In this document: positions 925-63,407 of the stretch, piece after piece
Numbering within the stretch: position 1 is the stretch's first letter
Layout: the number at the start of each line of letters is the position of its first letter
NCBI GenBank assembly: GCA_949287425.1
Contig: CASEGJ010000001.1
Coordinates: 1-64,000 of the forward strand
DNA length: 64,000 nt
Reading direction: 5' to 3'
Source of the DNA: an uncultured Caryophanales bacterium
GTDB taxonomy: Bacteria; Bacillota_I; Bacilli_A; RFN20; CAG-288
Program-made: the position numbers and the translations under genes
The notes under the pieces: model-generated
What the model was told of the DNA's origin: nothing
Seen by the model: only the letters and a program-made list of their open reading frames with translations
Databases searched by the model: none

Positions 925-1440
925 GTGGTAACTAGAAAAAACAAACGAATTTATACCACTGACGTATGAGAGCAATGGAAGAAAGATGGTAAAACCGAAG
1001 AAGTTCTAGCTTTTATAGCTGACTGTGCTAAGAAGCTAATTTCTCAACATGAGATGTGTAAGTATCTAAAGATTGAAGACCATACTTTTACCAACATGAA
1101 GCACAAGTACCCTCAAATACAAGAAGCGATAGATAAGCCTAGGTATGAGCTTAAAAAGGATCTTGCTAGTGCGATGTATAAGAAAGCGATGGGTTATGAG
1201 TCAGTAGATGAAGACCAGTTAATCGAAGAGAAAGATGACAAACAAATGAAGAAAGTCCATCGTGTGAAAAAGCAAATCGGTCCTGATTATAAAGTCATCA
1301 CTTATTTGCTTACTAAGAAGTTCGGTAAAGAGTATAGCGAGCGTTTTGAAGATCTGCAGCTTATGGAAAAGAAAATCGCAATGCAAAAGGAGGAATGGAG
1401 CAAAGATGATGGTAAAAATGATGATAACAATAACATCTAG
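925..1440 (+). pseudogene. Phage terminase small subunit-like gene with in-frame UGA
   Basis: AAGGAGG at 911-917 sits 7 bases before a GTG at 925, so translation probably began there. The frame reads through codon 15, a TGA at 967-969, into a long open frame (1054 on has an ATG). The product would be about 171 residues: an N-terminal segment ending EQWKKDGKTEEV, a helix-turn-helix region (CKYLKIEDHTFTNMKHKYPQ), then KKAMGYESVDE and a charged C terminus. That layout matches small terminase subunits of tailed phages, which bind packaging-site DNA. The TGA lies where Trp would fit, so it is either a nonsense mutation or a relic of a phage that read UGA as Trp. No large subunit follows. Confidence 0.55.
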
Positions 1441-2432: not shown

Positions 2433-5400
2433 ATGCAATGTGCAGTAAAGAAATTTGCCGAAAGCAAAGAAAATGGCCTCTGTCTAATCGACATGCCGAC
2501 AGGTACTGGTAAAACCTATCAAACCAGGTTATTAATTGAAAAGTACTTAAGAGGAGAAGAACTTAACGAAATTGAACTCGTTATTTATCTAACCCCACTT
2601 AAGAAGAATATTGATGATATCTATGACGAGTTACAGGAATCTTTAAAAGACAATCCTGAACTTTTTGATAATAACGTTCTTAGAATTTATTCTAACTATG
2701 AATGTGTTTTAGAACATTTTTTAGATATTGAAAATCAAATCCAACCTTCTCTAAAAAAGAAAGAAAGTTTTAAAAATCTTAAGAATAAAATTATTGCTTA
2801 CAAGTCATTGGAAAATGACGAGAATCTTTCTCGAGAAACCCTTACGACTAACTTAAGAGAAATTAGGACTGCTTATGAACCAAAATTTAGACATGATTTA
2901 GAAGCGGAATTGTTTAAAGATACAAAATCTGAGGCCGAAAGAAGAAAGAAAATTAATCATGACTATTCCTGGGTTAAAGTCCTTTATCCGGCATGTTTAA
3001 CAAAGAATAGAAAAGTATTATTTATGACTATGGATAAGTTCCTTTTTGGCAACGATCCGATCATAAGCAAACAATATAGGTTCCTATCTTACGCAAAGAC
3101 CAAAGGCGCTTTGATTTTCATTGATGAATTTGATGCAACGAAAGATGTTATTTTAAATCAAGAAATTGATAGATGCACTGATTATAAGATTGACATAGCT
3201 AAGCTATTTTCTGGAATAACAAGTGCTTTAAAGAGTGTTCCAACTCCAACTGCGCTCTTTGCTAATTCTAATGATATTGATGATTCAAAGAGTTCAAGAT
3301 CTTCTTTTGAAAAAATGAAGAAAAAGATGTTAGAAGTTGAAGAACAATACCATCTAAATTATTTATTTAAATTAGATAACGCAGATTCAACAGAAAGATA
3401 TTTTCTCTTTGATGATTATCAAATACATACAATTGCTTCTGATGAAAAAGGGACGCATATTGGTTGCAAGAATGATAAAAAGTTGAATCAAAACATTATT
3501 ACAGTTGGACAAAAGAATGATGATGGTTATTTCTATAGAGCCATTTATGCTATGAAAGGTGCTCTTAATTATTTCATTAGATGCTGTGCCATGTTGTCCC
3601 GTAATTATATGCAAAACAAAAACGACGAAGCAGAAGCAAGGCATGCTGATTTAATGGAAATTGAGCAAGCCGTTTCAACCATAATTGATTATTTTAATTT
3701 AGACTCCGACTTAGCCAAGATTCTTTCAACATTAATTGTTGATGACATTTCTCTTCCTAATGAAGCGAGAAAAAGAGATATCTTTTCAACTGATTTCTAT
3801 ATGAATGGGTTTAGATACTATGATTTCAACGATGATATCTCACACGATGTTTCTACAACAATTTCAATGTGTTATCTAAACAACACTCCTGAGAAGTTCA
3901 TTCTTTCTTTAGCCAATAAAGCAAGAGTGGTAGGTTTATCAGCTACTGCCAGCATCAGAAGTGTAACAGGTAACTATAACCTTGATTACATCCAACTTAA
4001 GTTGGGGGACAAGTATTACGAATTGCCTGAACAAGATAAAAACAGAATCAAAACATATGTTGAAGACAATCTAAAAGGCGATTATCCAATCAATGTATAT
4101 AAAATTGGTTTTGAAGATATTAGTCCGGAGTCAGTAGCAAAATCACTCTTTGAAAAAGATAAAAATATCGAAAAGTGCATTGGCATTTTGCAAAAATGTG
4201 TTAGTGCTGATGAAAAGAATCAATTCTATGAAATAGGAAGAATTGGAAAAGTCTTGTTTGCAATAAGAGAATTCCTTAGAAATAAAAATTCACAAGTTAT
4301 GCTTGTGCTTACAAATAAAAACATCAAATTTAATTACTATGATGATCCTTTCTCAGTGGCAATAGTCAACGATATTATTAAAGGATTATCAGAGGAGGCT
4401 GGATTAAAAGATAAACTTCCAAAGACTCACTATTTGTTTGGTGCTGATTTTGAGAAGGAAAGAGAAGCCTACAAAAAGGAAGTTAAGGAAGGACACAAGA
4501 TTATTCTTTTTTCTAGTTATCCTGCAGTAGGTACTGGTCAAAACTTACAATATGATTTGGAAGAAAACAGTGGTGATGATGAATTAAAGAAGAAAAAGGA
4601 TATTGACTCAATTTACGTTGAGCTTCCTACCAACATCATCGTTCATACTGAAAACATAAAAGAAGAAGGCGAACTTAATAAATACATCTACCAAATGGAA
4701 ACGCTTAGAGCTAATGGTGAAATTAGTCCATTTAGTTCTATGTCTAATATCAAGTGTTCATTTAAGAAATACATGAGTCCTGCCTTGTTTGTTAAATTCG
4801 ACATGAAGACTCCATATCAATGCCAATCAACAAATAACCATAGAGTAAAAATTTTGGTTCAAGCTATAGGTAGAATATGCCGTACAAAGGAAAAAGAAAA
4901 CGAAGTCAATATTTATATTGATAATGAAATTTTTGGAAAAGTTGATTTTTCATTGATGAAAGATAGATTGATGAACCCAGAATTTGAAAAAGTGGTTGCC
5001 TTATCTTCGTTAAAACCAGCTCATGATTTAGAGACAATTATTACTTTAAATAAAGCAGCTGATTGTAATATGAGAGTCGAATCTAGAATCAATAACATTC
5101 TTAGCTCCAACAAGGAGTTCTGGAATAAAGATGATATGGTTCAATGGAATTTAATTAGAGAAGTAGTACTCAAATATCCAACTATTTCTAGAGATAAGTT
5201 AAACGAATTAATTAAACAACCTGGATTGGAGTCATTGAAAGATTTCTACTTATTTGAACGTGGAAACAACAAAATGTTCTGTTATTTATTCAACCCAGAT
5301 AATCCATCGAGACCAATAAAGTTTGGAAAAGATTCTGAAACGGGTTGGACATTAATTAATTCAAAGAACTGTAGATTGCTTGAGCTCTTATCTAATTACT

Positions 5401-5876
5401 CGGTAAGAAAACACTTCGAGAAAAACGGATATGCCACAACATTTGAGATGAACGAAGGCATCATCTTACCTGTTGTTTATCAAAACATTTATAAAGGAGC
5501 TCTTGGTGAGGTTGCTGGTAGAGTAATTTTGGAAAGCAATGGTGCAAAGCTCAAAGAAATTACAGACCCTTATAAGTTTGAAAAATATGATTTCTGTTTA
5601 GAACGAGATAACGATGTTTATATTGATTTTAAAAACTGGTCTGAAAACGATAGAGAAGATAGAAGTCAATATATGGCTAAAGCTTATGACAAATTAGGAA
5701 AGATTAATGGCAAGCGTGCATATATCATCAATATGATATCCTCTGAATTAAACATTCACGAATCTGATAATATCACAACAATTTCGACACTTTATGAATG
5801 CGAACATGATGGTAAGTGCTATCCACTAGGATGGGAAATGCATAAACTCATTAAGAGAATCTTGGAGGGCAAATAA
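2433..5876 (+). CDS. SF2 helicase with C-terminal PD-(D/E)XK nuclease (module gene A)
   Basis: An 1147-residue protein. I chose ATG 2433 because AAAGGA (2418-2423) lies 9 bases before it; an ATG at 2403 has no such site. Helicase motifs are clear: Walker A MPTGTGKT (21-28), DEFD box (231-234) after a hydrophobic strand, SAT (503-505), and motif VI QAIGRICR (810-817). The C-terminal region has a restriction-endonuclease-like signature: E1026 in LGEVAG, then YDF (D1053) and YIDFKNW (D1065, K1067). This suggests an ATP-driven nucleic acid translocase that cuts DNA or RNA. It opens a three-gene run with a 1-base gap to the next gene, so they are surely cotranscribed and probably form one complex. 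Helicase-nuclease fusions are common in anti-phage systems; that role is inference. Confidence 0.8.
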   Translation: MQCAVKKFAESKENGLCLIDMPTGTGKTYQTRLLIEKYLRGEELNEIELVIYLTPLKKNIDDIYDELQESLKDNPELFDNNVLRIYSNYECVLEHFLDIENQIQPSLKKKESFKNLKNKIIAYKSLENDENLSRETLTTNLREIRTAYEPKFRHDLEAELFKDTKSEAERRKKINHDYSWVKVLYPACLTKNRKVLFMTMDKFLFGNDPIISKQYRFLSYAKTKGALIFIDEFDATKDVILNQEIDRCTDYKIDIAKLFSGITSALKSVPTPTALFANSNDIDDSKSSRSSFEKMKKKMLEVEEQYHLNYLFKLDNADSTERYFLFDDYQIHTIASDEKGTHIGCKNDKKLNQNIITVGQKNDDGYFYRAIYAMKGALNYFIRCCAMLSRNYMQNKNDEAEARHADLMEIEQAVSTIIDYFNLDSDLAKILSTLIVDDISLPNEARKRDIFSTDFYMNGFRYYDFNDDISHDVSTTISMCYLNNTPEKFILSLANKARVVGLSATASIRSVTGNYNLDYIQLKLGDKYYELPEQDKNRIKTYVEDNLKGDYPINVYKIGFEDISPESVAKSLFEKDKNIEKCIGILQKCVSADEKNQFYEIGRIGKVLFAIREFLRNKNSQVMLVLTNKNIKFNYYDDPFSVAIVNDIIKGLSEEAGLKDKLPKTHYLFGADFEKEREAYKKEVKEGHKIILFSSYPAVGTGQNLQYDLEENSGDDELKKKKDIDSIYVELPTNIIVHTENIKEEGELNKYIYQMETLRANGEISPFSSMSNIKCSFKKYMSPALFVKFDMKTPYQCQSTNNHRVKILVQAIGRICRTKEKENEVNIYIDNEIFGKVDFSLMKDRLMNPEFEKVVALSSLKPAHDLETIITLNKAADCNMRVESRINNILSSNKEFWNKDDMVQWNLIREVVLKYPTISRDKLNELIKQPGLESLKDFYLFERGNNKMFCYLFNPDNPSRPIKFGKDSETGWTLINSKNCRLLELLSNYSVRKHFEKNGYATTFEMNEGIILPVVYQNIYKGALGEVAGRVILESNGAKLKEITDPYKFEKYDFCLERDNDVYIDFKNWSENDREDRSQYMAKAYDKLGKINGKRAYIINMISSELNIHESDNITTISTLYECEHDGKCYPLGWEMHKLIKRILEGK

Positions 5877-5877
5877 T

Positions 5878-7617
5878 ATGGCAATTACCAATAAACTCCA
5901 AGTTAAGTTCAACTACGCAAAAATCGATGATTCTTATGATTTTTATGTTGTTACCACAGTTGATAAATACATCAAGAGCGGAGCGTTTGTTTTAGACAAA
6001 CCTTTAGAATCATTAAGAGCCGATTCTATTGTTTTTGATAACGGACGTTCATTATTTATCATGTTTAAAAAAGGAATGATTAATCGTTTAGAATTGGTTA
6101 GTCAGATAGAAGATGAAAAGCTGTCATTGAAACAAGTTAATTCATATGAATTAAAAGACTACATTTTGTTTAGACTATTTTTGTTTAGTTTGAACAATTA
6201 TGACAGTGATGAAATTAAATTTAACAATATTACAGGGAAGTTTTATATAACAAGTCCTTCTTGGTTAGCGAGAAATAAGAAATCCTTCAAAGCATTAAAC
6301 ATTAATGTAGATCAAAATCTCAACATTACAGTGGAAGCCACAACATTCACCCATCTATCGTTGTTTAATAACACAAATGCTTTATTCGACTATCCAAGGT
6401 ATGTTTTTTCAGATAAAAACTGCTCGCTTAAGCGTGTGTTGAGACCTGAAAACAATGATGTATATATTAGAAAATCATTATATGGTCAAAAGGCAGAGAT
6501 TCCCTTTTTCTCTTTTTATTCAAATAAGGAACTCAGGAATAATAAGGTGTTTTACCTATATGAAACATTAGAGCTGCTGAGCAAGAAATTCTCGAATTTA
6601 TTTGAGTTCTCTTTTGATGAGATTGAGGTTTTAAAAACACTAGGCAAAATAAGAGATAAAGATTTTATCGAAAATGTAAAAGAGATTGTAACGTTCAAAG
6701 ATATCAATGTTATCAATTGGTCCAATAGTAGTGAATACGATGATGAATTCAAATCAATCGTCGAGATGTTTACACTTGGCAAAATGGCACCAGTAACAGT
6801 TTCAAAAAACATTGTTGGTGGGTCATACAATCTTATCTTCTTACACAACAAAGAGTATTATGAACAAAATAAATATAATGATCCGTACAAGAATTTCCCT
6901 ACCAATGAAGTAATTCAACACATTACAATCGAAGATAGTGCTGACAAAATCATAAGTGATAATGAAGCCATTTATGAAACAATACTTAAAGAGTTTTTGA
7001 TTAAAGATGACATTCTTAACAAAAAGTCTATCTCTCTAGATGATTGGTCAGAATTCAATTTTGATAGAGACTATGTTTTTGGAAGGGAAAAAGATGGGGT
7101 TCATTATTTTATTATTGTTAAGCCTAATGGTAGATTTGAATTTTATTCAAAAAAAGATAATCTATCATCATTTGGCAATCCTGTTTTAGATGCCTGCTCA
7201 GATTATCTGACTGACAACAAAGGTAAAGAAAAAACAGTAATTGCGAATAGTAGTGGTGACATTATTGTCATCTCTAGAACACCAAAATATCTTTTGCCTT
7301 CTAACGAAATATTTATGTTAGAAAAAATAGGAAGAGATAAAGAATCTAGAAACAAGTACTTAGAAGGCGTTATTGATATAAATTTATATAACGATTGCTA
7401 TAGTGTTGGAATTAAAGGCAGTGGTATGAACACAAGAATTCCGAAAGCACCTCATCTTTACCAAATTGATGTTATTAATGGTGTGAATTTTATTGAAGAG
7501 CTTTTAGACACAATGGCTGTTACTTTTGTAAAATATAACTACTTCACGGTAATGCCATATCCAATTAAATATTTAAACGAATACATTTTGATGAGCGAGA
7601 CTAAAATGGGCAAATAA
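5878..7617 (+). CDS. Unrecognised protein, possibly PIWI-like C terminus (module gene B)
   Basis: A 579-residue soluble protein starting one base after the helicase stop, with GGAGGG in the end of the upstream gene as ribosome site. I do not recognise the family with confidence. Residues 1-75 look like a small beta-rich domain. The last 70 residues read as strand (CYSVGIKGSGMNTRIPKAPH), helix (EELLDTMAVTFVKY) and strand-helix (TVMPYPIKYLNEYI). That order and spacing resemble the end of Argonaute/PIWI domains, where a GTxxPxxY strand, a helix and a P-x-YxxxL segment close the RNase H-like fold. I cannot see the DEDX catalytic tetrad, so it may be inactive or the resemblance may be chance. Position between two nuclease genes argues for a recognition or scaffold subunit. 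Confidence 0.6.
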   Translation: MAITNKLQVKFNYAKIDDSYDFYVVTTVDKYIKSGAFVLDKPLESLRADSIVFDNGRSLFIMFKKGMINRLELVSQIEDEKLSLKQVNSYELKDYILFRLFLFSLNNYDSDEIKFNNITGKFYITSPSWLARNKKSFKALNINVDQNLNITVEATTFTHLSLFNNTNALFDYPRYVFSDKNCSLKRVLRPENNDVYIRKSLYGQKAEIPFFSFYSNKELRNNKVFYLYETLELLSKKFSNLFEFSFDEIEVLKTLGKIRDKDFIENVKEIVTFKDINVINWSNSSEYDDEFKSIVEMFTLGKMAPVTVSKNIVGGSYNLIFLHNKEYYEQNKYNDPYKNFPTNEVIQHITIEDSADKIISDNEAIYETILKEFLIKDDILNKKSISLDDWSEFNFDRDYVFGREKDGVHYFIIVKPNGRFEFYSKKDNLSSFGNPVLDACSDYLTDNKGKEKTVIANSSGDIIVISRTPKYLLPSNEIFMLEKIGRDKESRNKYLEGVIDINLYNDCYSVGIKGSGMNTRIPKAPHLYQIDVINGVNFIEELLDTMAVTFVKYNYFTVMPYPIKYLNEYILMSETKMGK

Positions 7618-7621
7618 GATT

Positions 7622-9856
7622 ATGGCAAAGAGACAAAAGTTTTCAAAAGATCCAAAGGTTAGTCTTCTTTCATTAGAAGAGTTTTTAAGCATCTATGATT
7701 TCTTTAAAGGAGGTATTCCGAAAAGATATAGATGGTCTACTGACACCGTACCGTCTGATTGTGAGACTTATTTTAAAATTACTGAAGATAGATTTATAGC
7801 AATATGCTATGGAATGACATTTTCAAATTTTGGAATGGATATAAAAGAAAAACTAGAAACAATTCAAATAGCATTCAGAGATGGCAAAACAGAGTACGAA
7901 TTGTATGATGCAGAAATAGAAGCTTTAAAAAAGGAACGTTCTAAGTTTAAAAAGAGTAAAAGATTAGATGATGAGATTGCGGAAACCGAAAAAGCTAAGA
8001 AAAGACTTCCTAAATATCAAAATGCAAAGCAAACTGTTGAACCGAAGAGTTTTAAAGACTATTTAATTGATACTGGATATAAAACCGATACTAGTAAGTA
8101 TAAACATCGATATGTTGTTTTTGATGTTGAAACAAATGGAACTAGAAAGAACAATGATGATTTGCTATCGCTTTCTATTTATGATCCATCAACTGGGATT
8201 TGTTATAATCGTTATTTTCCACTAGATTTACAGCCAGTAATTTTAACTGGATTTATCCATGGTATTACTGATGAAATGATTGCTGGTTCAACACATATAA
8301 CACAAGAGGAGATGGATCATATAATAAATTACTTTGATTTGAAAAATTCTATTCTCCTTTCCTTTAGTGGTGGAAAAGGCACGTTTGATTCTTCATTTGT
8401 AATTAACTATTGCGAAAGGCATGGTGTTCACGGTTTCGAGGACTTGCAGTATAAGAATATCAAGGAATTGATACCAGCAGCTCCATTTGGAACAGAAGGC
8501 CAACTTTCAAAGGATAACCTTTGTAGAATGTTTGGCATTGAAGGAGTGACTGATTTGCACTCAAGTATGAACGACTGTGTTCTAGAATGGAAATTATTTG
8601 AAAAACTAGCTAGACAGCCCGTCTTTTTCATACAAAACCACTTATACAAATATACCAAAGACTATATTATCCCTATTTCCTATATAACAAAACATCCAGA
8701 ACTTCCAAGATTTGCTGGAATAAAAATTCCTTCGGTTTTGGGGTATACCGAGACTATTTTCGAATATGATTTTCCTAAAACGGCTCTCAAATCGATTAAA
8801 AAATTCCCAACAAATATTACCGGCATAACAATTGAAAATGCTATTAATTCATTGCTTGGCGTCGAAGAACAAGATAACTATAAATTCTTAGCTGATAACA
8901 AAAGACATCTAGAATATGTTGGATCATTAGATAGCAGAATTGAGGAAATCCCAATAATAACTGAGAATGACGGAACAATAAAAACAACTGATCCGCAATA
9001 TAACGATTACGTAGCTGAAATTAATAACGTGACAAAAGTGATAATGGAAAACCTTGTTGACACCATTAAGTTTATAAAAACAAATGTTTTTACTGACTCT
9101 AGAATTATGAGCCAAGAAATGGTTATTTCGGAAGACAATAAGATACTTGCACTGTGTGATTTATCTTCTAGCAAAAGTATTATGGAAATTAAAACAATGG
9201 ATATAATGAGAGAAGATGAATATGGATTGCATATCTCTGCTTTAATTTCTAGGCAACTCTATTATCAAAGAAAAGGTAGAGATGTATATGCGTTGTCGAT
9301 TGTATTTGATAAACACTATAAAGAAAAAACATTCGAAGAGGTTGTTGATGGTTTAAGGATTAAAATCTATAAAGTTGACCTAAAAGTAGTTGAAATTATA
9401 CCAAAAGTATATAAACCTGGACTCTTTGCCACCAAAATACTCCAAGAACTAATTAAAGATAATTCTTTAACATATCCGCAACTCGCTAAAAAGACTGGCT
9501 TTAGCGAAAGAACAATACAATCTTATGTTCGAGAACTTAAAGACAATGGATTTATTGTTAGAGAGGGATTGTCTAACCAAAATGGCGTTTGGAGAGTCTT
9601 GAAGGATGAAAATGGCAATCTAGTTCCAGAAGATCAACAAGTTAAGTTTAGAGCTATAGACTATTCTAAAAACTATAAGCAAAAAGTATTGGAAATGACT
9701 GAAGGTAAAATAGTTTGTACAAATTATATAAATAGTCAAACACCGGCTGAGTACGAGTGTATGGTTTGCGGTCATAAATGGTCAACGAGAGCAGAGCATT
9801 TTAAACATAGGCAAAAACACGGATGCCCAAAATGTAAGGCTGGACGAGAAGCATAA
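7622..9856 (+). CDS. DEDDh exonuclease + PD-(D/E)XK + winged helix + zinc ribbon (module gene C)
   Basis: A 744-residue multidomain protein. Residues about 160-330 form a DnaQ-like 3'-5' exonuclease with all five expected residues: D168 and E170 (FDVETNG), D256 (GTFDSSF), H313 and D318 (HSSMNDC), plus HGIT at 213-216. Residues about 499-560 look like a second nuclease fold: D513, E522-x-K524 (IMEIKT) and RQLYYQ (Q545, Y548). A winged helix lies at 601-660 (LTYPQLAKKTGFSERTIQSY). The C terminus is a zinc ribbon with C713, C716, C735 and C738. Start ATG follows the previous stop by 4 bases. An N-terminal charged helix spans about 90-135. The combination of two nucleases and two nucleic acid binding domains suggests end-processing of a target chosen by genes A and B. 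Confidence 0.8.
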   Translation: MAKRQKFSKDPKVSLLSLEEFLSIYDFFKGGIPKRYRWSTDTVPSDCETYFKITEDRFIAICYGMTFSNFGMDIKEKLETIQIAFRDGKTEYELYDAEIEALKKERSKFKKSKRLDDEIAETEKAKKRLPKYQNAKQTVEPKSFKDYLIDTGYKTDTSKYKHRYVVFDVETNGTRKNNDDLLSLSIYDPSTGICYNRYFPLDLQPVILTGFIHGITDEMIAGSTHITQEEMDHIINYFDLKNSILLSFSGGKGTFDSSFVINYCERHGVHGFEDLQYKNIKELIPAAPFGTEGQLSKDNLCRMFGIEGVTDLHSSMNDCVLEWKLFEKLARQPVFFIQNHLYKYTKDYIIPISYITKHPELPRFAGIKIPSVLGYTETIFEYDFPKTALKSIKKFPTNITGITIENAINSLLGVEEQDNYKFLADNKRHLEYVGSLDSRIEEIPIITENDGTIKTTDPQYNDYVAEINNVTKVIMENLVDTIKFIKTNVFTDSRIMSQEMVISEDNKILALCDLSSSKSIMEIKTMDIMREDEYGLHISALISRQLYYQRKGRDVYALSIVFDKHYKEKTFEEVVDGLRIKIYKVDLKVVEIIPKVYKPGLFATKILQELIKDNSLTYPQLAKKTGFSERTIQSYVRELKDNGFIVREGLSNQNGVWRVLKDENGNLVPEDQQVKFRAIDYSKNYKQKVLEMTEGKIVCTNYINSQTPAEYECMVCGHKWSTRAEHFKHRQKHGCPKCKAGREA

Positions 9857-9944: not shown

Positions 9945-10058
9945 ATGACTGATGAAATTCAATTACGGTGCCAACTCGCATTGGCTATCGTAGACTCGAT
10001 CTGGCTAAAGGGTAAATGTAGAGTAGCAGATTATATAGGGAAGGAATTAGCAAATTAA
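9945..10058 (+). CDS. Small 37-residue protein, SHOCT-like
   Basis: ATG 9945 follows a purine-rich GAGAGAG site. The product begins MTDEIQLRCQLALAIVDSIW and continues with a short basic tail. The amphipathic helix pattern followed by a G-K turn resembles short SHOCT-like proteins often found beside recombinases. It may be a mobile-element leftover. Function unknown. Confidence 0.4.
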   Translation: MTDEIQLRCQLALAIVDSIWLKGKCRVADYIGKELAN

Positions 10059-10069
10059 TTAAAGAAAAA

Positions 10070-10104: not shown

Positions 10105-10485
10105 TTATATTAGAGCATAATTGAATCGCATCGTCAGCAACTGATGAACTTGATTCATTGAAGCGACAAGTAAAGCGTTAGTCATAATAAGATCAATAAC
10201 TCTAGGTTTACCTTTAGCCGAATCAACAATATAAATCAAAGCTCCCTCATCGAAGATATTTTCAGAGCCACCTGCCGAATATAATTTATTTCTAATATAG
10301 CTTTCAGCTTCAGATTTGCTTAGTCCTTGGAAGGAATAATTAATACCAATTCTTTGCCTTAAAGGTTCATGAAGAATTGAAGAAAGAGTAGAAAGAATAA
10401 AAGGGAGACCAGCGAGGATAACTACGAAGTTATTATAAGAATCCATTTTGAAGTTAAATATCATTTTTAAATCATTAAGGCTCAA
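10105..10485 (-). pseudogene. ExeA/TniB-type AAA ATPase, N-terminal half missing
   Basis: The 126-residue frame starts at a TTG and lacks the Walker A half. What remains, FKMDSYNNFVVILAGLP, LRQRIGINYSFQGLSKSEAE and KGKPRVIDLIMTNAL, matches the sensor-1 to lid part of ExeA/TniB-like ATPases that act as target selectors for transposases. An in-frame TAA sits just upstream on the minus strand, and no partner integrase is present. It is a remnant of an insertion element beside the defence-like module. It keeps its own terminator. Confidence 0.6.
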
Positions 10486-10662
10486 AATGAGCCATACTTA
10501 GCCTTCTTTAAAGCTTACTTAAGGAATGCTCATCTCAAAGGATTTTCTCGGCATAACATATTTTTTTATCCTCATTTAATTTGGAAATTATCAAATGTTA
10601 CTTTTATATATCCTTAATTAATTTGGTAATATCGTCCTCATTTAACTTGCTATTCTACAGTA

Positions 10663-25119: not shown

Positions 25120-25131
25120 AGATGTGTCAAT

Positions 25132-25208
25132 TAAGGGGAGCTATTTGCTGAGAGGTTATTAAGTTAACGACCCTAAACCTGATCTAGGTAATGCTAGCGT
25201 AGGGAAAT
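25132..25208 (+). promoter_or_regulatory. TPP riboswitch (THI element)
   Basis: The conserved cores are intact: GGGGAGC, then GCTGAGA (25147-25153), ACCC, then ACCTGATCTAGGTAATGC and AGCGTAGGGAA. It senses thiamine pyrophosphate and controls thiT. The terminator downstream shows that control is by premature transcription stop when TPP is bound. Confidence 0.95.
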
Positions 25209-25237
25209 CTTTTTCTTATTTATATTGAAGATTTTAC

Positions 25238-42464: not shown

Positions 42465-42779
42465 ATGCTTAGTGGTGTTACAATTGAAAAAATAAGAAAG
42501 TTTAATGAAGATAGAAAATGGGATGAATATCATAATGGAAAAGACTTAGCTATTTCATTATGTTTAGAAGCTGCCGAATTATTGGAAATTTATCAGTGGA
42601 GTAAAGATGATTTGGATTGTAATAATAAAATCGATAAAATAAAAGAAGAATTAGCTGATGTTTTTATATATGCGATTCAAATTGCACAAAAGTACAATTT
42701 AAATATTGACGAAATTGTTAATAATAAAATTCAGCGAAATGCTCAAAAATATCCATTGGATAGGGAGAATAAATTTTAA
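42465..42779 (+). CDS. MazG-like nucleotide pyrophosphohydrolase
   Basis: 104 residues, all-alpha. Metal-binding acidic motifs are visible: LCLEAAELLEIYQW near 31-45 and EELADVFIYAI near 62-72. MazG/RS21-C6-like enzymes hydrolyse (d)NTPs to monophosphates; some act in anti-phage responses. AGGAGG precedes ATG 42465. Its stop codon overlaps the start of the next gene (TAATG), so the two are translationally coupled and likely act together. Confidence 0.82.
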   Translation: MLSGVTIEKIRKFNEDRKWDEYHNGKDLAISLCLEAAELLEIYQWSKDDLDCNNKIDKIKEELADVFIYAIQIAQKYNLNIDEIVNNKIQRNAQKYPLDRENKF

Positions 42780-44680
42780 TGATTGTTTATTCAAATACAA
42801 AGGGAAATTTTATTAGTGATGTTCATAATGGACTGATTGCTGATTTAATTGAAAAAGAATTTAAAGAACATCACTTACCTCATAACAATAATAATGAACA
42901 TAGAGCGTGGGTAAATTCAATGCAATTCATGAGTTCGGTTTTGCGTGATGAAGCTATTGATGATGATTGTTCACTAGCAATTGAATATCAAGTACCATTA
43001 ACTTCTAAAAGGGTTGATTTTATAATTGCCGGAAAAAGTTGTGATGACAAAAATAATGTTGTTATTATTGAACTAAAGCAATGGGAAGATAGTAAAATTA
43101 CTGCAAGACCTGATGTTGTATATACATATGTTGGTGGTGCTAATAGATATGTTTGTCATCCATCTTATCAAGCGTATTCATATGCCAAAATCATTGAGAA
43201 TTTTAATGATTCTATTAATAAATATGATATTCATTTAATTCCATGTGCATATCTACACAACTATAGAGAAGCAAATAGAAGTCACATAGAAAATAAATTT
43301 TATAAAGACGCAATTGGTGCAGCTCCATTATTTTTACAAAGAGATGCAGATAAATTGACAAATTTTATAAAAAAATATGTTAGAAAAAAAGATGGAATTG
43401 ATATTTTATTTAAAATTGATAATGGCAAATTAAAGCCAAGTAAATCATTGCAGGATTCTATTGTTAGTATGCTAAAAGGCAATAAAGAATTTTATTTAAT
43501 TGACGAGCAAAAAATTGTTTATGAATTAATTAAAGAAAAAGTATATAATTCGTTAGAAAATTCAAAAGATTTTAGCAATAAATACGGAAAATATACAATA
43601 ATTATTAAAGGTGGTCCTGGAACTGGAAAAAGCGTTATTGCTATACAATTGTTAGCTGATTTGCTAATAAAACAGTTTAGCGCTTGTTATGTAACAAAAA
43701 ATGCTGCTCCAAGAAATGTGTATTTTAAAAAATTAGAAAATAATGATTATAAAAAAGCATATATAAAGTCATTATTTTTAAGTAGTGGATCGTTTATTAA
43801 TGCAAAAAACAATCAATTTGATTGTATTTTATGTGATGAAGCACATAGATTAAATGCTAAAAGTGGTCTTTTTCAAAATCAAGGTGAAAATCAGATTAAA
43901 GAAATTATTCATGCTTCAAGAGTATCAGTGTTTTTTATAGATGAAGATCAGCAAGTTTCCGCTAAAGATATTGGGACTATTGATGAAATTAAACATTGGG
44001 CTGTGATTGAAAATAGCAAATTGATATATGATCATAATTGTGATTTAGTAAGTCAATTTCGTTGCAATGGTTCTGATGGATATCTTTCATTTTTAGATAA
44101 TTTGCTGGAAATTAGAGAAACAGCTAATTATACTTTTGATTTTGATTATGATTTAAGACTTTTTAGTAATCCAAAAGCAATGATGGAAGAACTTAGAAAA
44201 AAGAATATTAATAACAAAGCTAGAATGCTGGCTGGATATTGTTATGAATGGAAAACAAAAAAAGAAACAGAAAAAGGTCTAGATAATCCTGATTCATTTG
44301 ATATAAAAATAGATGATTTTAAGGCAAAATGGAATTTTGCGAATACAGATACATGGGCCATTGATTCTAATAGTTTTGATCAAGTTGGATGTATTCACAC
44401 TTGTCAAGGACTAGAATTTGATTATGTAGGGGTAATAATTGGAAAAGATTTATCATTCAAGAATGGTCATGTCGTTACTGATATGAAAGCGAGAGCCTCA
44501 TCTGATAAATCATTAGTTGGAATTAAGAAAAAAGTAGATTGGCAGAAAAAAGCTGATAGTATAATTAGAAATACATATAAGGTTTTGTTATCACGTGGGC
44601 AAAAAGGTTGTTATATTTATTGCCAAGATAGTAATTTATTAAAACATATTTCCGAAATGACTGGGATTAATATTGAGTGA
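42779..44680 (+). CDS. DUF2075 P-loop ATPase with N-terminal PD-(D/E)XK nuclease
   Basis: 633 residues. The N-terminal third looks like a restriction-type nuclease: E69, D80 in RVDFIIAG and E98-L-K100 in VVIIELKQW. The ATPase follows: Walker A GGPGTGKS near 279-286, ILCDEAHRLN (Walker B) near 355, FFIDEDQQVS, and C-terminal SFDQVGCIHTCQGLEFDYVG with VLLSRGQKGCYIY, the DUF2075 (superfamily 1-like) pattern. Start overlaps the MazG-like stop. Such ATPase-nucleases are widespread in defence islands. Substrate unknown. Confidence 0.82.
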   Translation: MIVYSNTKGNFISDVHNGLIADLIEKEFKEHHLPHNNNNEHRAWVNSMQFMSSVLRDEAIDDDCSLAIEYQVPLTSKRVDFIIAGKSCDDKNNVVIIELKQWEDSKITARPDVVYTYVGGANRYVCHPSYQAYSYAKIIENFNDSINKYDIHLIPCAYLHNYREANRSHIENKFYKDAIGAAPLFLQRDADKLTNFIKKYVRKKDGIDILFKIDNGKLKPSKSLQDSIVSMLKGNKEFYLIDEQKIVYELIKEKVYNSLENSKDFSNKYGKYTIIIKGGPGTGKSVIAIQLLADLLIKQFSACYVTKNAAPRNVYFKKLENNDYKKAYIKSLFLSSGSFINAKNNQFDCILCDEAHRLNAKSGLFQNQGENQIKEIIHASRVSVFFIDEDQQVSAKDIGTIDEIKHWAVIENSKLIYDHNCDLVSQFRCNGSDGYLSFLDNLLEIRETANYTFDFDYDLRLFSNPKAMMEELRKKNINNKARMLAGYCYEWKTKKETEKGLDNPDSFDIKIDDFKAKWNFANTDTWAIDSNSFDQVGCIHTCQGLEFDYVGVIIGKDLSFKNGHVVTDMKARASSDKSLVGIKKKVDWQKKADSIIRNTYKVLLSRGQKGCYIYCQDSNLLKHISEMTGINIE

Positions 44681-44764
44681 GTTCGAATATAAGCATCAAC
44701 TTGTATAAGTTAAATTTTAAGACGTTATAAAATTTAGATATTTATTTAGTTAGGAGTAAATTAT

Positions 44765-45454
44765 ATGAAAAATTCACAAGGTGTAATCTACATACTTACC
44801 AATCCATCATTTCCAGACTATGTAAAAATAGGCTATGCAGATGATGTAAAAAAAAGACTAAAGGAACTTAATAGAAGTGAATGCATTCCTTTTGCTTTTA
44901 GACTTTATGCTTATTATGAAGTTCCTAAAAGATTAACTGACATGAAACTTCATCAGATGATTGATAAGTTAAATCCTAATTTAAGAAGTATCGAAGAGTT
45001 TGATGGTAAAACTAGAAAGCGTGAATTTTACAATATGAGTGCTGCTGATGCTTATTCCATTCTTGAAACCATCGCTCAAATAAATGGATTAGAAGATCAT
45101 TTGTTTTTAGTTGAACCTTCAGCTAAACAAATTAAAGATGAAGAAGAAGCAGAAGAGATAAGAACTAAAAGAAGTTATACATCTCTTCCTAAATTAGATT
45201 GGATGATTAAACAGGGCATTATTAAAATTGGAGATAAAATTTGTGTTATTTCTCATCCAAGTGAAGTAGCAACTATAGTAGATGCTAATTATGTTGAATA
45301 TAAAGGTGAATTGATGGCTGCTCATAAATTTGGTTGTTTAGTAACAGGTTGGAAAGCCATTCAAATATATGCAACTATGAGATTAGTTGATAACAAGAAA
45401 ACTCTAGGTGAACTTAGAGAAGGAAAAATGAAAGAACTAGGAATGATTAAATAA
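44765..45454 (+). CDS. GIY-YIG nuclease (T5orf172/Mug113 type)
   Basis: 229 residues. GVIYILTNPSFPDYVKIGYA followed by DDVKKRLKELN is a GIY-YIG domain of the T5orf172/Mug113 kind; R32-region and a later E (REFYNM) complete the usual pattern. The C-terminal part (about 130-225) ends GWKAIQIYATMRLVDNKKTL then ELRE, like DUF4357-type domains that accompany restriction enzymes. It lies 84 bases after the DUF2075 gene on the same strand. DUF2075 and GIY-YIG domains are often fused or adjacent, which supports a functional link. Confidence 0.78.
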   Translation: MKNSQGVIYILTNPSFPDYVKIGYADDVKKRLKELNRSECIPFAFRLYAYYEVPKRLTDMKLHQMIDKLNPNLRSIEEFDGKTRKREFYNMSAADAYSILETIAQINGLEDHLFLVEPSAKQIKDEEEAEEIRTKRSYTSLPKLDWMIKQGIIKIGDKICVISHPSEVATIVDANYVEYKGELMAAHKFGCLVTGWKAIQIYATMRLVDNKKTLGELREGKMKELGMIK

Positions 45455-57337: not shown

Positions 57338-58639
57338 ATGGATTTACAAATTTATAAATATTACGATGGTAACGGCGGGGCAACAATATTAATTTCACTA
57401 GCTATAATTTTATTTGCAGGTTTTGCATTTTCAAAAATAGCTAAACTATTAAAGCTACCTAATGTTACTGGTTATATAATTGCTGGAATAATAATTGGTC
57501 CTTATGTTTTAGACTTAGTTCCACATAATATTATTTCAAACATGTCTTTTTTAAGTGATTTAGCTTTGGGATTTATCGCTTTTGGAGTAGGTAAATCATT
57601 TAAAAAAGAAGTTATTAAAGCTTCAGGAATGAAAGTAATTATTATTACTTTATTAGAAGCTTTACTAGCTGGTGTGCTAGTTAGCATTTCAATATATATA
57701 ATCTTTCCAAATATGGGGCTTAGTTTTGCATTGTTACTTGGTGGAATTGCAACTGCAACAGCTCCAGCATCAACAATGATGACAATTAAGCAATATAAAG
57801 CTAAAGGGGAATTTGTCGATATATTGTTACAAGTAGTCGCTTTAGACGATGTTGTTTGCTTATTAGCTTTTTCAATAATTACTGCAGTAATTGAAGCTAC
57901 TAATCAAGGTAATTTAAACGTGTTAGAAATTGTATTACCTATTATTTACAATCTCGGATTTATGTTAATTGGCTTAATTAGTGGGTTAATTTTACCATAT
58001 TTAATTAAAAACAGATCATCGAATTCTAAAATGATAATGTGCGTGTGTTTTATTTGTTTAATTTCTGGTTGTGCTAGTTTATTAGATGTTTCACCATTGT
58101 TATCATGTATGATATTTGGTGCAAGTTATATAAATAAAACTAAGGACAAAGAATTATTTAATCAAATAGATGATTTTGATCCACCAATCATGTTAGCTTT
58201 CTTTGTAATTTCAGGAATGAATATGGATCTTTCAAGTTTTTTAACTATAGGAATGATTGGTTTAGTTTACTTTATTATCAGAATTTTAGGTAAATATTTA
58301 GGTGCTTATTTAGGTTGTAAGATAGTAAAAGTCGAAAAGAAAACTACTAGGTATCTTGGCTTTGGCTTAATTCCACAAGCTGGAGTAGCAATTGGGCTAG
58401 CCTTTTTAGGTCAAAGAATGCTTCCAAATTCAATTGGTGATACCTTTTTATCAGTAATATTATGCTCATCAGTCTTATATGAAATGATTGGTCCAGTTAG
58501 TTCTAAATTTGCTTTGATTAAATCAGGAGCTATCGATTTAGAAAGTGTTAAATTAGCTAATGTTAAAGAAGTTGAAAACAAGCAAAAACAATCTGACAAA
58601 TTAGAACAAGTTCAAGTAAGCGAAAACAAGATTAATTAA
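57338..58639 (+). CDS. CPA2-family cation/proton antiporter
   Basis: 433 residues with about 12 hydrophobic segments. The N-terminal LLKLPNVTGYIIAGIIIGP, the ATAPASTMM stretch and VVALDDVVCLLAF (DD-type ion site) are KefB/NapA-like motifs. It exchanges Na+ or K+ for protons across the membrane. The C-terminal tail is short, with no TrkA-N domain, so KefC-type gating is unlikely. Its last 8 bases overlap the end of the convergent giant helicase gene. Confidence 0.87.
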   Translation: MDLQIYKYYDGNGGATILISLAIILFAGFAFSKIAKLLKLPNVTGYIIAGIIIGPYVLDLVPHNIISNMSFLSDLALGFIAFGVGKSFKKEVIKASGMKVIIITLLEALLAGVLVSISIYIIFPNMGLSFALLLGGIATATAPASTMMTIKQYKAKGEFVDILLQVVALDDVVCLLAFSIITAVIEATNQGNLNVLEIVLPIIYNLGFMLIGLISGLILPYLIKNRSSNSKMIMCVCFICLISGCASLLDVSPLLSCMIFGASYINKTKDKELFNQIDDFDPPIMLAFFVISGMNMDLSSFLTIGMIGLVYFIIRILGKYLGAYLGCKIVKVEKKTTRYLGFGLIPQAGVAIGLAFLGQRMLPNSIGDTFLSVILCSSVLYEMIGPVSSKFALIKSGAIDLESVKLANVKEVENKQKQSDKLEQVQVSENKIN

Positions 58640-61600
58640 TAGAATAAGTATCGTTAACAAAATTCAATTTGTTATCTTTAACTAGACTATCAATAATAGA
58701 TAAAATGCAATTTTTATCTACTAAGCTAGGATAACTAATATTAACTAATTTATAGACTTTTTCAATTAAATTATCTTTATTAATATTTTTAGCTTGTTTA
58801 ACTAACTGATAGATACATTCTTCTAATTCGATAGTAGGAATTTCATCGAGTTTTCTATTTGAATTGATTCTAAACTTAATTTTACTTTCATCAAATAAAT
58901 AGGCATCTTTGATCTTTTTAAGATTATATTTATTTTCTAAGATTCTAATACTATAAAAGATATAGCTAGAATAAGTAGAAGTGATTCTATTTAACTTTAA
59001 ATAATCTTTTAATCTTTTTTCTAAGAATTTCTGATTGATAGGTTGTTCTATTTTGATAATGTTATTGATAGCAGTTAAAACATCTTGACCTTGATTGTTA
59101 GTGGATTTAAATTTTATCGGGTTAGCAAAAATATAACTTTGGAAATTATAATCGCTATTATCTTTAGAATTAGAAATAGAATTATCATCAAAATAATCTT
59201 CAAAAAGATTAACTTGTTCCTGTTTAGTTTTCTTAGTATCTAATTTATCAAATTCTAAATTAGATTTAGAATTAACTAAGTTATTATCATCTTTTTTAAC
59301 TTGTAAAGGAGTTTTATTCGCTTCGATTACATTTTTAGATTTCGATTCATTTAAAACATCTGATTTATTAGATATATTAGAAGTTGATTTAATTTCTTCA
59401 ATCTTGTTAGAAGCTAAACTAGATGATCTTTTATTAGAATTATTATCAATTGAAGAAAGTAACTTTTCAATTAATTTAACTAAGTTATCTTTTTCCTTTT
59501 TGGTATTGTATAACCAGTCGACTTCCCAAAGATGATAGATATTCCAACCTTTGGATTTTAATATTTGTGGGCGAAGATGATCTCTATCAGTAGCTGTTAA
59601 ATTGTTTTTATATGTTAGTCCATCTGATTCAATTCCCAAGATATATTTATTGTTATTATCTTTGATAGCTAAATCTAATTTATATGATGAACAGCCTAAT
59701 TTAGTATCAACTTTGTAATTATTGGCGGTTAAAAAATTATAGACGTCTTCTTCGTAATCTGAATCAAAAGTCGGTTTATTCGAATATTGATAATTAGTAG
59801 TATTGCTATTTTGAGCATATTCAAGATAAGCCTTTAATAATTTTGGACCATTTTTAGTATTGTTAGTTATTTTAATATCATTAGAAAGGATAGATGAAAC
59901 AACTTGGATATTAATTTTAGCTCTAGTAATAGCGACATTTAATCTTCTTTCACCGCCATCGCGATTTAATGGGCCAAAAGAATTATAAAATTTATCGTTT
60001 TCATCTTTACCATAGCCGATTGATAAAATGATAGTATCTCTTTCATCACCTTGGCTAGTTTCGAGATTTTTAATAAAGAAAGGTTCAAATCTATCTTTAC
60101 TAAAGAAAGATTGATATTTTTGATTAGCTAATAATCTCTCTTCAAGGATATCGTTAATTAATTCTTGTTGATTGATATTAAAAGCTATGACACCTAACGA
60201 ACGATTATGGTATCTTTCAATATTTTCAAAAATTAAATCGACAACTTTGTTAGCTTCAAGATAGTTAATCCCTTTACCTCTAGTATAAGTGGCGTTTTTA
60301 ACATAGATAAAATCTATTCCATAGCCATCTTGTTTAGAATGGGAAGAAGGGAAACTAATTAATTTATTATCGTAAAAATGCCTGTTAGAAAATTGAATGA
60401 GGTCTTCACTTAAGGAACGATAATGCCATAAAAGATATCTTTGAGGCAAGATAGAACAATAATCTAAGATAGATTCAAAATCGCTAGCGTAGACTTCACT
60501 ATCATTTTCATCGTAATTAGTTTCACTAATAAAGAAGGAGGTTGGTGGCATTTGCTTAGGATCACCAACAACTATTGCTTGTTTGCCTCTATAGATACTT
60601 GTTAAAGCATCCCAAGGGAAAATTTGGCTGGCCTCATCAAAAATAACAGTATCAAATTTAATTTTAGCATCTAAAAAAGAAGAGACAGTAAGTGGAGACA
60701 TCATCAAACACGGCTTAATATCAAAAATGATATCTTTATATTGATCAATTATCTTTCTAACAGATAGGGAATTTCTCTTTCTATTAGATTCTTGAATAAG
60801 TTGATTTGCCAATTGAGAATTGGAATTTAAAATCTTAGTAAGTAACTTATCTTTAATTTCTTCTTGATTAGCTTTTAAGTTTAATTGATCTTCTTTTTGG
60901 AAAGAAGAAATAATATTTTCATGAGCAATTCTATTTAAAGAATTAAAAATAGGAGTATCGCGTTTTAATTTATCAGCCCACTGAGTGAAAAAGATTTTCT
61001 TAAAAGTGTTAACTATCTGTTTTTTATCGATCTTAGATTTAAAAAATAAATTGATATAGTTTAAATAACCATCCTTATTAGCTTGGTTAAGATAATTAGC
61101 CATATTGATGTAATATTCAATGTTAGTTAAAGAAGAACTAATTGAACTTAATATACTATTTAACTTAGTAAATTCAATAGTATATAAGCTAGAAGCTTCT
61201 TCAAAATAAGACGCTAACTTAGAAAGATCTTTTAACTCTTTTTCATAGTTAAATAGATTGTTAAAAATTTGCTTTTGATGAGTTAATAAATCATCATAGT
61301 TCCAGTTAAAACCTTTCGGTGGAATAAGATCAATATCACTAAGAAGTTTAATTCCATATTCACAATAAGATTTGTAATTTTGTTTAGTTAAACTTTTAGA
61401 TGGGTAAACTAAGTTAGATATTTGATTAAAAACATCATCAAACTTTACTTTAGAAAGATAGAGTTTAGCTAAAAGAAGAGAGTCTTTTTTAGCGATTTCA
61501 AGATTATATTTATCCTTTCCAACATAGTGAGATTTTAAAAATTTGTAATCTTTATGATAATTGGATTTAAAATGACGAGCAAAACCAGAATAAGTCTGCA

Positions 61601-63407
61601 TCCTTTTTGAAATGTCTTCTAGTTTATCAATTAAAACATCTGAAGTATAGTTAATTAAAGTTGAAGAAGTTATTTCATCAATGTTATTTCCATATTCATT
61701 TAGATAAGTTAAAAGGGCAACTAGGTTATTAGCGCTGTTAGTTAAAAAGAAACTATGTTCATATAAAGGGAGATCTTTTAAAGTATCTAGATAAGTTAAA
61801 ATATTGAAGATGTTTTTATAATTTACGTGTTTATAGCCAAAATTTTCATATAGGAGTTTTTGTAACTTGGCTAAGTTTTTAGAAATAGATAAGCATTTAT
61901 TAACACTCAAAGTAAGTTCAGTAAGTTTTTCATAAGAGTGATTTTGATATTTGTATCCATATAAAGGAGATTTAGAAAGATCGTAATTAACTATAGAATT
62001 AGTAGAAAGGATCTTTTCAAGATTGACACTAGCTTTTTCAAGATAGTCTTGACCTTTATTAGAAATATCATCAAAAGCAAAACCTAAATTGCTAAATTGT
62101 TTATAATAGATGGCTTTAGCAAAAATTTCATAGCTAGATAGATTAATGATAGGTTGAATTTGATGTAAGCTATTAACATATTCATTAAGCTTATTTTTAT
62201 CCTCATCGAGTTTGTTAGTTCTATTTAAATCAACTAGATTTCTTGAAATTTGTAAACAGTTAACTAAATCAGTTAAAACAAGCTGCTTATTAGAATTTAG
62301 CCCGTGGAGTTTTAAACAAAAATCACCTAAGCCATTTTCTTTTAACTTAGTATAAACAACATCTAAAGCAGAGATCTTTTCTGAGACAAATAAAACCTTT
62401 TTACCTTGGTAAATTAATTCAGCAATGATATTTGTAATAGTCTGAGATTTACCAGTTCCAGGTGGGCCAATTAAGACAAATGAATTGCCGTTTTTAGCAT
62501 CCAAAATTGCTTTCATTTGTGAAGAGTCAGCGCTAACTATATTGTGAAGTTGATTTTGTTTATCTTCTAAATTGATATTATCGATTAAATTGTTCTGCTT
62601 TAATTTTTCTTCACCAAACAAAGTGTTAATTAAACTAGAAGATAAGACGATATCTTCATGTTCTTTTAAATCGTTATATATATCTATTTTAGAAAAGGTA
62701 AATAGGCCTATATAACTAGAATAGATTATAGACCAATCATCTTGTTTAGAAATTTCTTTTTTAAGCTTTTTAAAATACTTTTCTAAATTATCATTTGGTT
62801 TATAAGTAGGGAAATTAATATTATATTCGTGTTTCAATTTATAACAGAGAGTAGAATTTAAACTCGCTTCATCTAAATTTGGGTTTAAATAAGTTTCAAA
62901 TTTACCTTCGTAGCTAAATTGACATGGAATTAAAATGATAGGAGCTTGATAGAAAGAGTTAGAATCGCTATCTTTATATCTAAGTAAGCCAAAGCAGATA
63001 TATAGTAAGTTAATTCCGCGTTCATTAATAGCATCTAAATTAGTATTATCTATGTTTTTGATAGCTTTTTTTAAACTTGTAGAAAATGAATCAGTCATTA
63101 TTAAAAGCTCGTTATCAGATAAAGAAATTTTATCAATCAGCGATTTTCTAAATTGAATTTGAGAAGAAGAAAAACTGTTAGTCTCTAAAAAATCTTTCTT
63201 TTTGTTTTGATTAGGCGAAAATAGTTCAGAAAACTTATCAAAATCAAAAATAGAAACCTTTTTGTTAGAACAAACTATCTGATAGCTAGAAAAGATAGTA
63301 GGAGAATAAATTTTTAAATATCTATCACTAATAGTAAAGTTAATTAACTTGTTTGATTTACCTAGATCGAGGAGTTTTTCTTCAGCTTTTTGTAACTTTA
63401 AATTCAT
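58632..63407 (-). CDS. DUF4011-type helicase with Vsr/DUF559-like nuclease domain
   Basis: 1591 residues. The start EEKLLDLGKSNKLINFTISD is the DUF4011 signature. A superfamily 1 helicase follows: Walker A IGPPGTGKSQT near 313, VIFDEASQIFPWDAL near 922, VGDPKQMPPTSFF, DERDTIILSIGYG and LNVAITRAK. The region about 1215-1310 looks like a Vsr/DUF559 nuclease (ESDGLTY, DRDHLRPQILKSKGW, LWEVDWL). The C terminus has a second helical domain (DUF3320-like). Such giant proteins are common in defence islands and some have been shown to protect from phage. A single gene of its own, on the minus strand. Confidence 0.82.
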   Translation of the reverse strand: MNLKLQKAEEKLLDLGKSNKLINFTISDRYLKIYSPTIFSSYQIVCSNKKVSIFDFDKFSELFSPNQNKKKDFLETNSFSSSQIQFRKSLIDKISLSDNELLIMTDSFSTSLKKAIKNIDNTNLDAINERGINLLYICFGLLRYKDSDSNSFYQAPIILIPCQFSYEGKFETYLNPNLDEASLNSTLCYKLKHEYNINFPTYKPNDNLEKYFKKLKKEISKQDDWSIIYSSYIGLFTFSKIDIYNDLKEHEDIVLSSSLINTLFGEEKLKQNNLIDNINLEDKQNQLHNIVSADSSQMKAILDAKNGNSFVLIGPPGTGKSQTITNIIAELIYQGKKVLFVSEKISALDVVYTKLKENGLGDFCLKLHGLNSNKQLVLTDLVNCLQISRNLVDLNRTNKLDEDKNKLNEYVNSLHQIQPIINLSSYEIFAKAIYYKQFSNLGFAFDDISNKGQDYLEKASVNLEKILSTNSIVNYDLSKSPLYGYKYQNHSYEKLTELTLSVNKCLSISKNLAKLQKLLYENFGYKHVNYKNIFNILTYLDTLKDLPLYEHSFFLTNSANNLVALLTYLNEYGNNIDEITSSTLINYTSDVLIDKLEDISKRMQTYSGFARHFKSNYHKDYKFLKSHYVGKDKYNLEIAKKDSLLLAKLYLSKVKFDDVFNQISNLVYPSKSLTKQNYKSYCEYGIKLLSDIDLIPPKGFNWNYDDLLTHQKQIFNNLFNYEKELKDLSKLASYFEEASSLYTIEFTKLNSILSSISSSLTNIEYYINMANYLNQANKDGYLNYINLFFKSKIDKKQIVNTFKKIFFTQWADKLKRDTPIFNSLNRIAHENIISSFQKEDQLNLKANQEEIKDKLLTKILNSNSQLANQLIQESNRKRNSLSVRKIIDQYKDIIFDIKPCLMMSPLTVSSFLDAKIKFDTVIFDEASQIFPWDALTSIYRGKQAIVVGDPKQMPPTSFFISETNYDENDSEVYASDFESILDYCSILPQRYLLWHYRSLSEDLIQFSNRHFYDNKLISFPSSHSKQDGYGIDFIYVKNATYTRGKGINYLEANKVVDLIFENIERYHNRSLGVIAFNINQQELINDILEERLLANQKYQSFFSKDRFEPFFIKNLETSQGDERDTIILSIGYGKDENDKFYNSFGPLNRDGGERRLNVAITRAKINIQVVSSILSNDIKITNNTKNGPKLLKAYLEYAQNSNTTNYQYSNKPTFDSDYEEDVYNFLTANNYKVDTKLGCSSYKLDLAIKDNNNKYILGIESDGLTYKNNLTATDRDHLRPQILKSKGWNIYHLWEVDWLYNTKKEKDNLVKLIEKLLSSIDNNSNKRSSSLASNKIEEIKSTSNISNKSDVLNESKSKNVIEANKTPLQVKKDDNNLVNSKSNLEFDKLDTKKTKQEQVNLFEDYFDDNSISNSKDNSDYNFQSYIFANPIKFKSTNNQGQDVLTAINNIIKIEQPINQKFLEKRLKDYLKLNRITSTYSSYIFYSIRILENKYNLKKIKDAYLFDESKIKFRINSNRKLDEIPTIELEECIYQLVKQAKNINKDNLIEKVYKLVNISYPSLVDKNCILSIIDSLVKDNKLNFVNDTYSIN

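What the first reader, a model, noticed from the sequence alone, without database searches (positions are those of the whole stretch)
2433..9856. Three-gene helicase-nuclease / unknown / dual-nuclease module, candidate undescribed defence system
Three genes with gaps of 1 and 4 bases encode an SF2 helicase with C-terminal PD-(D/E)XK, an unrecognised 579-residue protein and a DEDDh exonuclease fused to PD-(D/E)XK, winged helix and zinc ribbon. Motifs are read directly. The set differs from Hachiman, Gabija, Zorya, Dnd, DISARM and BREX as I know them. It sits between decayed phage genes and a transposon ATPase remnant, a typical defence context. The nearest concept known to me is the pPIWI_RE three-gene island (PIWI protein, helicase, REase), but the proteins here are not the standard members. 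Defence function is inference.
Basis: partly seen in the sequence, partly recalled or inferred. Interest (0 to 1): 0.85.

Follow-up and report, generated by a model that had tools for sequence, protein, structure and literature searches.

The report
DdmDE plasmid defence plus nuclease neighbour
The first two genes are a divergent copy of DdmDE, a known bacterial system that uses a DNA-guided Argonaute and a helicase-nuclease to destroy plasmids; the third gene is an unnamed double-nuclease that elsewhere lives on its own and happens, or has been recruited, to sit directly behind it.

Summary
The interpretation 'undescribed three-gene system' does not hold. ORF1 is DdmD and the 'unrecognised' ORF2 is DdmE, the Argonaute-like guide protein. 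ORF1 matches PADLOC DdmD (E 2.4e-41) and solved DdmD chains (E 4e-48). A family profile of ORF2 matches DdmE structures over its whole length (E 1e-37), and its predicted fold hits DdmE first. Helicase and nuclease motif residues of DdmD are kept. So genes 1-2 are a new, divergent member of the known plasmid-elimination system DdmDE. ORF3 (N-terminal domain, DEDDh exonuclease, PD-(D/E)XK-like fold, winged helix, treble-clef zinc finger) is not part of known DdmDE. None of eight intact DdmDE loci elsewhere has it. All 17 relatives found in other genomes, mostly gut Bacillota MAGs, lack ddmDE beside them, and their genomes have none. A functional link in this strain (guide trimming, or finishing off cut DNA) stays possible: the genes abut and share atypical GC3. 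It is unproven and not a conserved module.

The parts
2433..5876 (+). ddmD: SF2 helicase with C-terminal PD-(D/E)XK nuclease (1147 aa)
   Evidence: PADLOC DdmD E 2.4e-41; PDB L. casei DdmD 9ix4 E 4e-48 and V. cholerae DdmD 8u0u E 7e-41; catalytic motifs kept
5878..7617 (+). ddmE: Argonaute-like DNA-guided sensor (579 aa, shorter than the ~690-715 aa solved DdmE)
   Evidence: PADLOC DdmE E 3.5e-9; profile of 9 homologues vs PDB DdmE 9iw3 E 1.1e-37 over profile positions 2-592; Foldseek of predicted model: top six hits are DdmE chains, then eukaryotic Argonaute/Piwi
7622..9856 (+). ORF3: N-terminal domain (about 1-150), DEDDh exonuclease (about 164-330), PD-(D/E)XK-like fold (about 430-566), winged helix (about 603-660), treble-clef zinc finger (about 697-740); association with ddmDE uncertain
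   Evidence: PADLOC Cas-associated DEDDh model E 4.4e-11; HTH_24 E 2e-9; AlphaFold pLDDT 82, Foldseek best hit is the DnaQ domain of S. thermophilus 8h2f, E 1.5e-6; invariant catalytic residues
5867..5876 (+). GGGCAAATAA at the ddmD stop; the same 10-mer ends ddmE at 7608-7617
   Evidence: only two copies in the window, both ending in the stop codon of their gene
1054..1440 (+). left flank: phage terminase small-subunit remnant
   Evidence: phrog_309 E 2.1e-15
10105..10485 (-). right flank: fragment of ExeA/PEP-CTERM-type transposition ATPase
   Evidence: TIGR03015 E 5.5e-15, profile positions 140-255 of 269

Best explanation
Genes 1 and 2 are a DdmDE plasmid-elimination system. Inferred mechanism, taken from the characterised Vibrio and Lactobacillus systems: DdmE, a catalytically inactive Argonaute-like protein, carries a short DNA guide, pairs with plasmid DNA and recruits DdmD. 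DdmD leaves its autoinhibited dimer, loads on the displaced strand, translocates and cleaves with its PD-(D/E)XK nuclease. ORF3 is a member of a separate, normally stand-alone DEDDh/PD-(D/E)XK nuclease family that was placed behind ddmE in this lineage. It is most likely an independently acting nuclease travelling in the same acquired island, not an obligate part of DdmDE. Shown here: homology, intact motifs, gene order, and lack of conservation of the third gene. Inferred: activity, target and mechanism.
For: DdmD and DdmE homology by three routes. ddmD-ddmE order and abutment are conserved in eight other loci from Bacilli, Nostoc, Lactobacillus, Cetobacterium and Persicobacter. Within the same 395-genome class sample, DdmD is in 8 and ORF3 in 3, with only this genome in both. 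17 ORF3 relatives all lack ddmDE beside them, and their genomes have no DdmD while the positive controls ring. Genomes with ddmDE have no full-length ORF3, again with positive controls. DdmDE mechanism: review PMC12409362.
Against: No activity was tested. ORF2 is about 110-135 aa shorter than the solved DdmE proteins and its own model is weak (pLDDT 63). ORF3 sits 4 bases behind ddmE, and all three genes have GC3 of 0.25-0.29 against 0.12-0.21 for 17 other genes of the window, which fits joint acquisition and perhaps joint function. Several ORF3 relatives lie on short contigs.
Confidence: 0.7

Rival explanations
1. ORF3 is a recruited accessory of this DdmDE: its DEDDh and/or PD-(D/E)XK nuclease makes or trims the short DNA guides for DdmE, or degrades the plasmid strand that DdmD opens. 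(The DdmDE identity of genes 1-2 is common to this and the best explanation.)
For: Same strand, 4-nt gap, shared atypical GC3. Best fold match is a CRISPR DnaQ domain; a Cas2-fused DEDDh trims captured DNA to a set length (PMC10284694). Guide acquisition for pAgos is largely unknown, and one pAgo uses a co-encoded nuclease (PMC12904381). Whether extra nucleases finish the plasmid is unresolved (PMC12409362).
Against: ORF3 is absent from all other ddmDE loci seen and its relatives are solo in genomes without DdmD. DdmDE of Vibrio works as two genes (PMC12409362).
Confidence: 0.2
2. The three genes form one new, conserved defence system that differs from DdmDE.
For: Compact same-strand layout with mobile-element remnants on both sides.
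Against: Genes 1-2 match DdmD/DdmE full length; the third gene does not co-occur.
Confidence: 0.03
3. The locus is inactive: a decaying island whose neighbours are already pseudogenes.
For: Flanking phage and transposon genes are truncated; related DdmD copies in G131 (split, stop inside) and G173 (no ddmE beside it) look decayed.
Against: All three window ORFs are full length with every motif residue intact, so any decay has not reached them.
Confidence: 0.07

Closest known systems
DdmDE of Vibrio cholerae (VPI-2)
   Same: helicase-nuclease DdmD followed directly by Argonaute-like DdmE; same motifs; full-length profile match
   Different: low sequence identity, DdmE about 110 aa shorter, different host class (Bacilli); an extra nuclease gene lies downstream here
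DdmDE of Lactobacillus casei (PDB 9ix4, 9iw3, 9ixm)
   Same: best PDB sequence match for both proteins
   Different: DdmE 715 aa against 579 aa; no homologue of ORF3 among solved structures by sequence
Cas-associated DEDDh / Cas2-DEDDh trimmer
   Same: DEDDh exonuclease domain; best PADLOC model and best fold hit for ORF3
   Different: no Cas1/Cas2 here; ORF3 adds a PD-(D/E)XK-like domain, winged helix and zinc finger
phrog_192 phage 'DNA polymerase exonuclease subunit'
   Same: matches ORF3 residues 80-450 (E 3e-15)
   Different: covers only part of ORF3; no relative of the whole protein found in the phage, plasmid or IMG/VR collections

Membership tests
DdmDE | DdmD: SF2 helicase with C-terminal PD-(D/E)XK nuclease, homologous to known DdmD | tested here: met
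DdmDE | DdmE: Argonaute-like protein homologous to known DdmE | tested here: met
DdmDE | ddmD and ddmE adjacent in one operon | tested here: met
   1-nt gap with GGAGG ahead of the ddmE start; same order and abutment in eight relatives; transcription itself not tested
DdmDE | DNA-guided plasmid elimination | not testable with these tools
   needs guide sequencing and plasmid stability assay
DdmDE | ORF3 as a conserved third component (would be needed to call the triplet one system) | tested here: not met
   0 of 8 other intact loci; 0 of 17 ORF3 genomes carry DdmD
DEDDh (DnaQ-like) exonuclease, for ORF3 | five catalytic residues D-E-D-H-D on the DnaQ fold | tested here: met
   invariant in 17 of 17; Foldseek 8h2f E 1.5e-6
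PD-(D/E)XK superfamily, for ORF3 second nuclease domain | alpha-beta-beta-beta-alpha-beta core with E...D...ExK | tested here: inconclusive
   predicted topology 479-566 and residues E499/D513/E522/K524 fit, but no Pfam PD-(D/E)XK model hits and hhalign to the DdmD nuclease fails
pPIWI_RE island | pPIWI_RE protein family with its own helicase and REase | not tested
   not searched with a dedicated model; ORF2 matches DdmE instead

The most novel reading that the evidence does not exclude
A three-protein DdmDE variant in which ORF3, carrying the two nuclease types that CRISPR adaptation uses on captured DNA (DEDDh and a Cas4-like PD-(D/E)XK), makes or trims the guide DNAs for DdmE.
Probability: 0.1. 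Interest if true: 0.75.

Novelty: new member of a known kind. Interest (0 to 1): 0.3.

Why it matters
It extends DdmDE to an uncultured, small-genome Bacilli lineage with a shortened DdmE, useful for defining the minimal guide protein. ORF3 exposes an unnamed family of dual nucleases with exchangeable C-terminal DNA-binding modules. If ORF3 does act on DdmE guides, it would make testable the open question of where pAgo guides come from.

Tried and rejected
Three-gene conserved module: rejected by co-occurrence. Carriage of ORF3 or DdmD by phages or viral contigs: nothing found. ORF3 on plasmids: nothing found. PADLOC DdmD model run over the 17 ORF3 genomes: uninformative because no control rang, replaced by a homologue profile with positive controls (two weak hits there at E about 7e-6 cover only the Walker A region of other helicases). 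hhalign of the ORF3 PD-(D/E)XK-like part with the DdmD nuclease: no match. A literature search for DEDDh exonucleases linked to prokaryotic Argonautes found no paper. The primary DdmDE structure papers are not held in the library, so the mechanism is cited from reviews. Looking for an empty site in same-genus genomes with the flanking transporter gave only distant homologues at 33-38% identity. Cetobacterium third gene behind ddmE (231 aa): no Pfam family, no match to the ORF3 query.

Full report
Observation. The three ORFs are present at the stated coordinates, on one strand, with gaps of 1 and 4 bases. A GGAGG precedes ddmE; no comparable ribosome site precedes ORF3. The flanks hold a terminase small-subunit remnant, a truncated methyltransferase/ParB-like piece and a fragment of an ExeA/PEP-CTERM-type ATPase.

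Identity of genes 1 and 2. PADLOC calls ORF1 DdmD (E 2.4e-41) and ORF2 DdmE (E 3.5e-9, C-terminal part). ORF1 matches the solved L. casei (E 4e-48) and V. cholerae (E 7e-41) DdmD proteins. ORF2 alone matches DdmE only weakly in the PDB (E 2e-4), but a profile of nine homologues matches DdmE over its whole length (E 1e-37). A Foldseek search of the predicted model, although the model is of modest quality (pLDDT 63), gives six DdmE chains first and then eukaryotic Argonautes. The 'unrecognised 579-residue protein' is therefore DdmE. The Argonaute catalytic site was not tested here; DdmE is described as a catalytically inactive pAgo (PMC12409362).

Mechanism. From the literature (PMC12409362): DdmE binds DNA guides, finds plasmid DNA and recruits DdmD, whose dimer opens; DdmD loads on the non-target strand, moves and cleaves. 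The helicase and nuclease motif residues of DdmD are intact here. Whether further nucleases complete plasmid loss is stated there to be unclear. That this locus works so is inference from homology.

Gene 3. ORF3 has an N-terminal domain, a DEDDh exonuclease, a second nuclease-like domain with PD-(D/E)XK layout, a winged helix and a treble-clef zinc finger. The DEDDh assignment is firm. The PD-(D/E)XK assignment rests on topology and conserved residues; no family model confirms it. Across the family the core (DEDDh plus second domain) is constant, the N-terminal domain occurs in five of 17 aligned members, and the C-terminal end varies (winged helix, treble clef, HTH_3).

Co-occurrence. In 395 genomes of the class, DdmD is found in 8 and ORF3 in 3; only this genome has both. 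Eight other intact ddmDE loci, from Bacilli, Nostoc, Lactobacillus, Cetobacterium and Persicobacter, lack ORF3. Seventeen ORF3 relatives from GTDB genomes, mostly gut Bacillota MAGs, have no ddmDE nearby; several lie near serine recombinases or in what look like conjugative elements, judged from the ORF sequences. Their 17 genomes have no DdmD, with three positive controls ringing. One close relative (L047) begins 178 bases into a 3-kb contig, but the DNA before it reads like the tail of a tRNA gene, not ddmE (my reading of the ORF, not a tRNA search). ORF3 is thus not a conserved DdmDE component.

What remains open. All three genes have GC3 of 0.25-0.29, above the 0.12-0.21 of 17 other genes of the window, so they may have arrived together. 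The 10-mer GGGCAAATAA occurs twice in the window, exactly at the stops of ddmD and ddmE, where 0.14 copies are expected (the 10-mer was chosen after seeing it). The last residues of ddmE (MGK) differ from its relatives. This may mark the joint at which ORF3 was attached, or be chance. A functional role for ORF3 in guide making is attractive given the CRISPR DEDDh precedent (PMC10284694) and the poor understanding of pAgo guide acquisition (PMC12904381), but nothing here demonstrates it.

Confidence. That genes 1-2 are DdmDE: about 0.97. That ORF3 is an independent neighbour rather than a recruited accessory: about 0.7 to 0.2, which is what the scores of the best explanation and the first rival express.

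Verdict. New member of a known kind (DdmDE) with an uncertain nuclease neighbour.

Noticed in passing
window 58632-63407 (-): 1591-aa DUF4011 / SF1 helicase / MTES_1575 REase protein, near full-length match to the PADLOC candidate defence family PDC-S37 (1130 bits).
   Followed up: partly
window 42779-45454 (+): Schlafen group 3 helicase-domain protein followed by a PDC-S57 candidate defence protein (E 1.9e-76): a further possible defence gene cluster.
   Followed up: partly
window 5867-5876 and 7608-7617: Same 10-mer GGGCAAATAA ends both ddmD and ddmE, followed within 1-4 bases by ATGGCAA at the next gene; only two copies in the window.
   Followed up: partly
L047-L063, ORF3 homologues: Unnamed DEDDh + PD-(D/E)XK-like nuclease family of gut Bacillota with swapped C-terminal DNA-binding modules, often near recombinases or in apparent conjugative elements.
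   Followed up: partly
L041 (G173) and L040 (G131): DdmD copies that look decayed: one with no ddmE beside it, one split with a stop inside.
   Followed up: no
L045 12000-12695: Cetobacterium plasmid ddmDE has its own third gene (231 aa, no Pfam family) 1 base behind ddmE, unrelated to ORF3 by the search used.
   Followed up: partly
window 25124-25222 (+): TPP riboswitch.
   Followed up: no
window 10017-10065 and 10611-10659: Imperfect 49-nt inverted repeat (78%) around the ATPase fragment, possible transposon ends.
   Followed up: no
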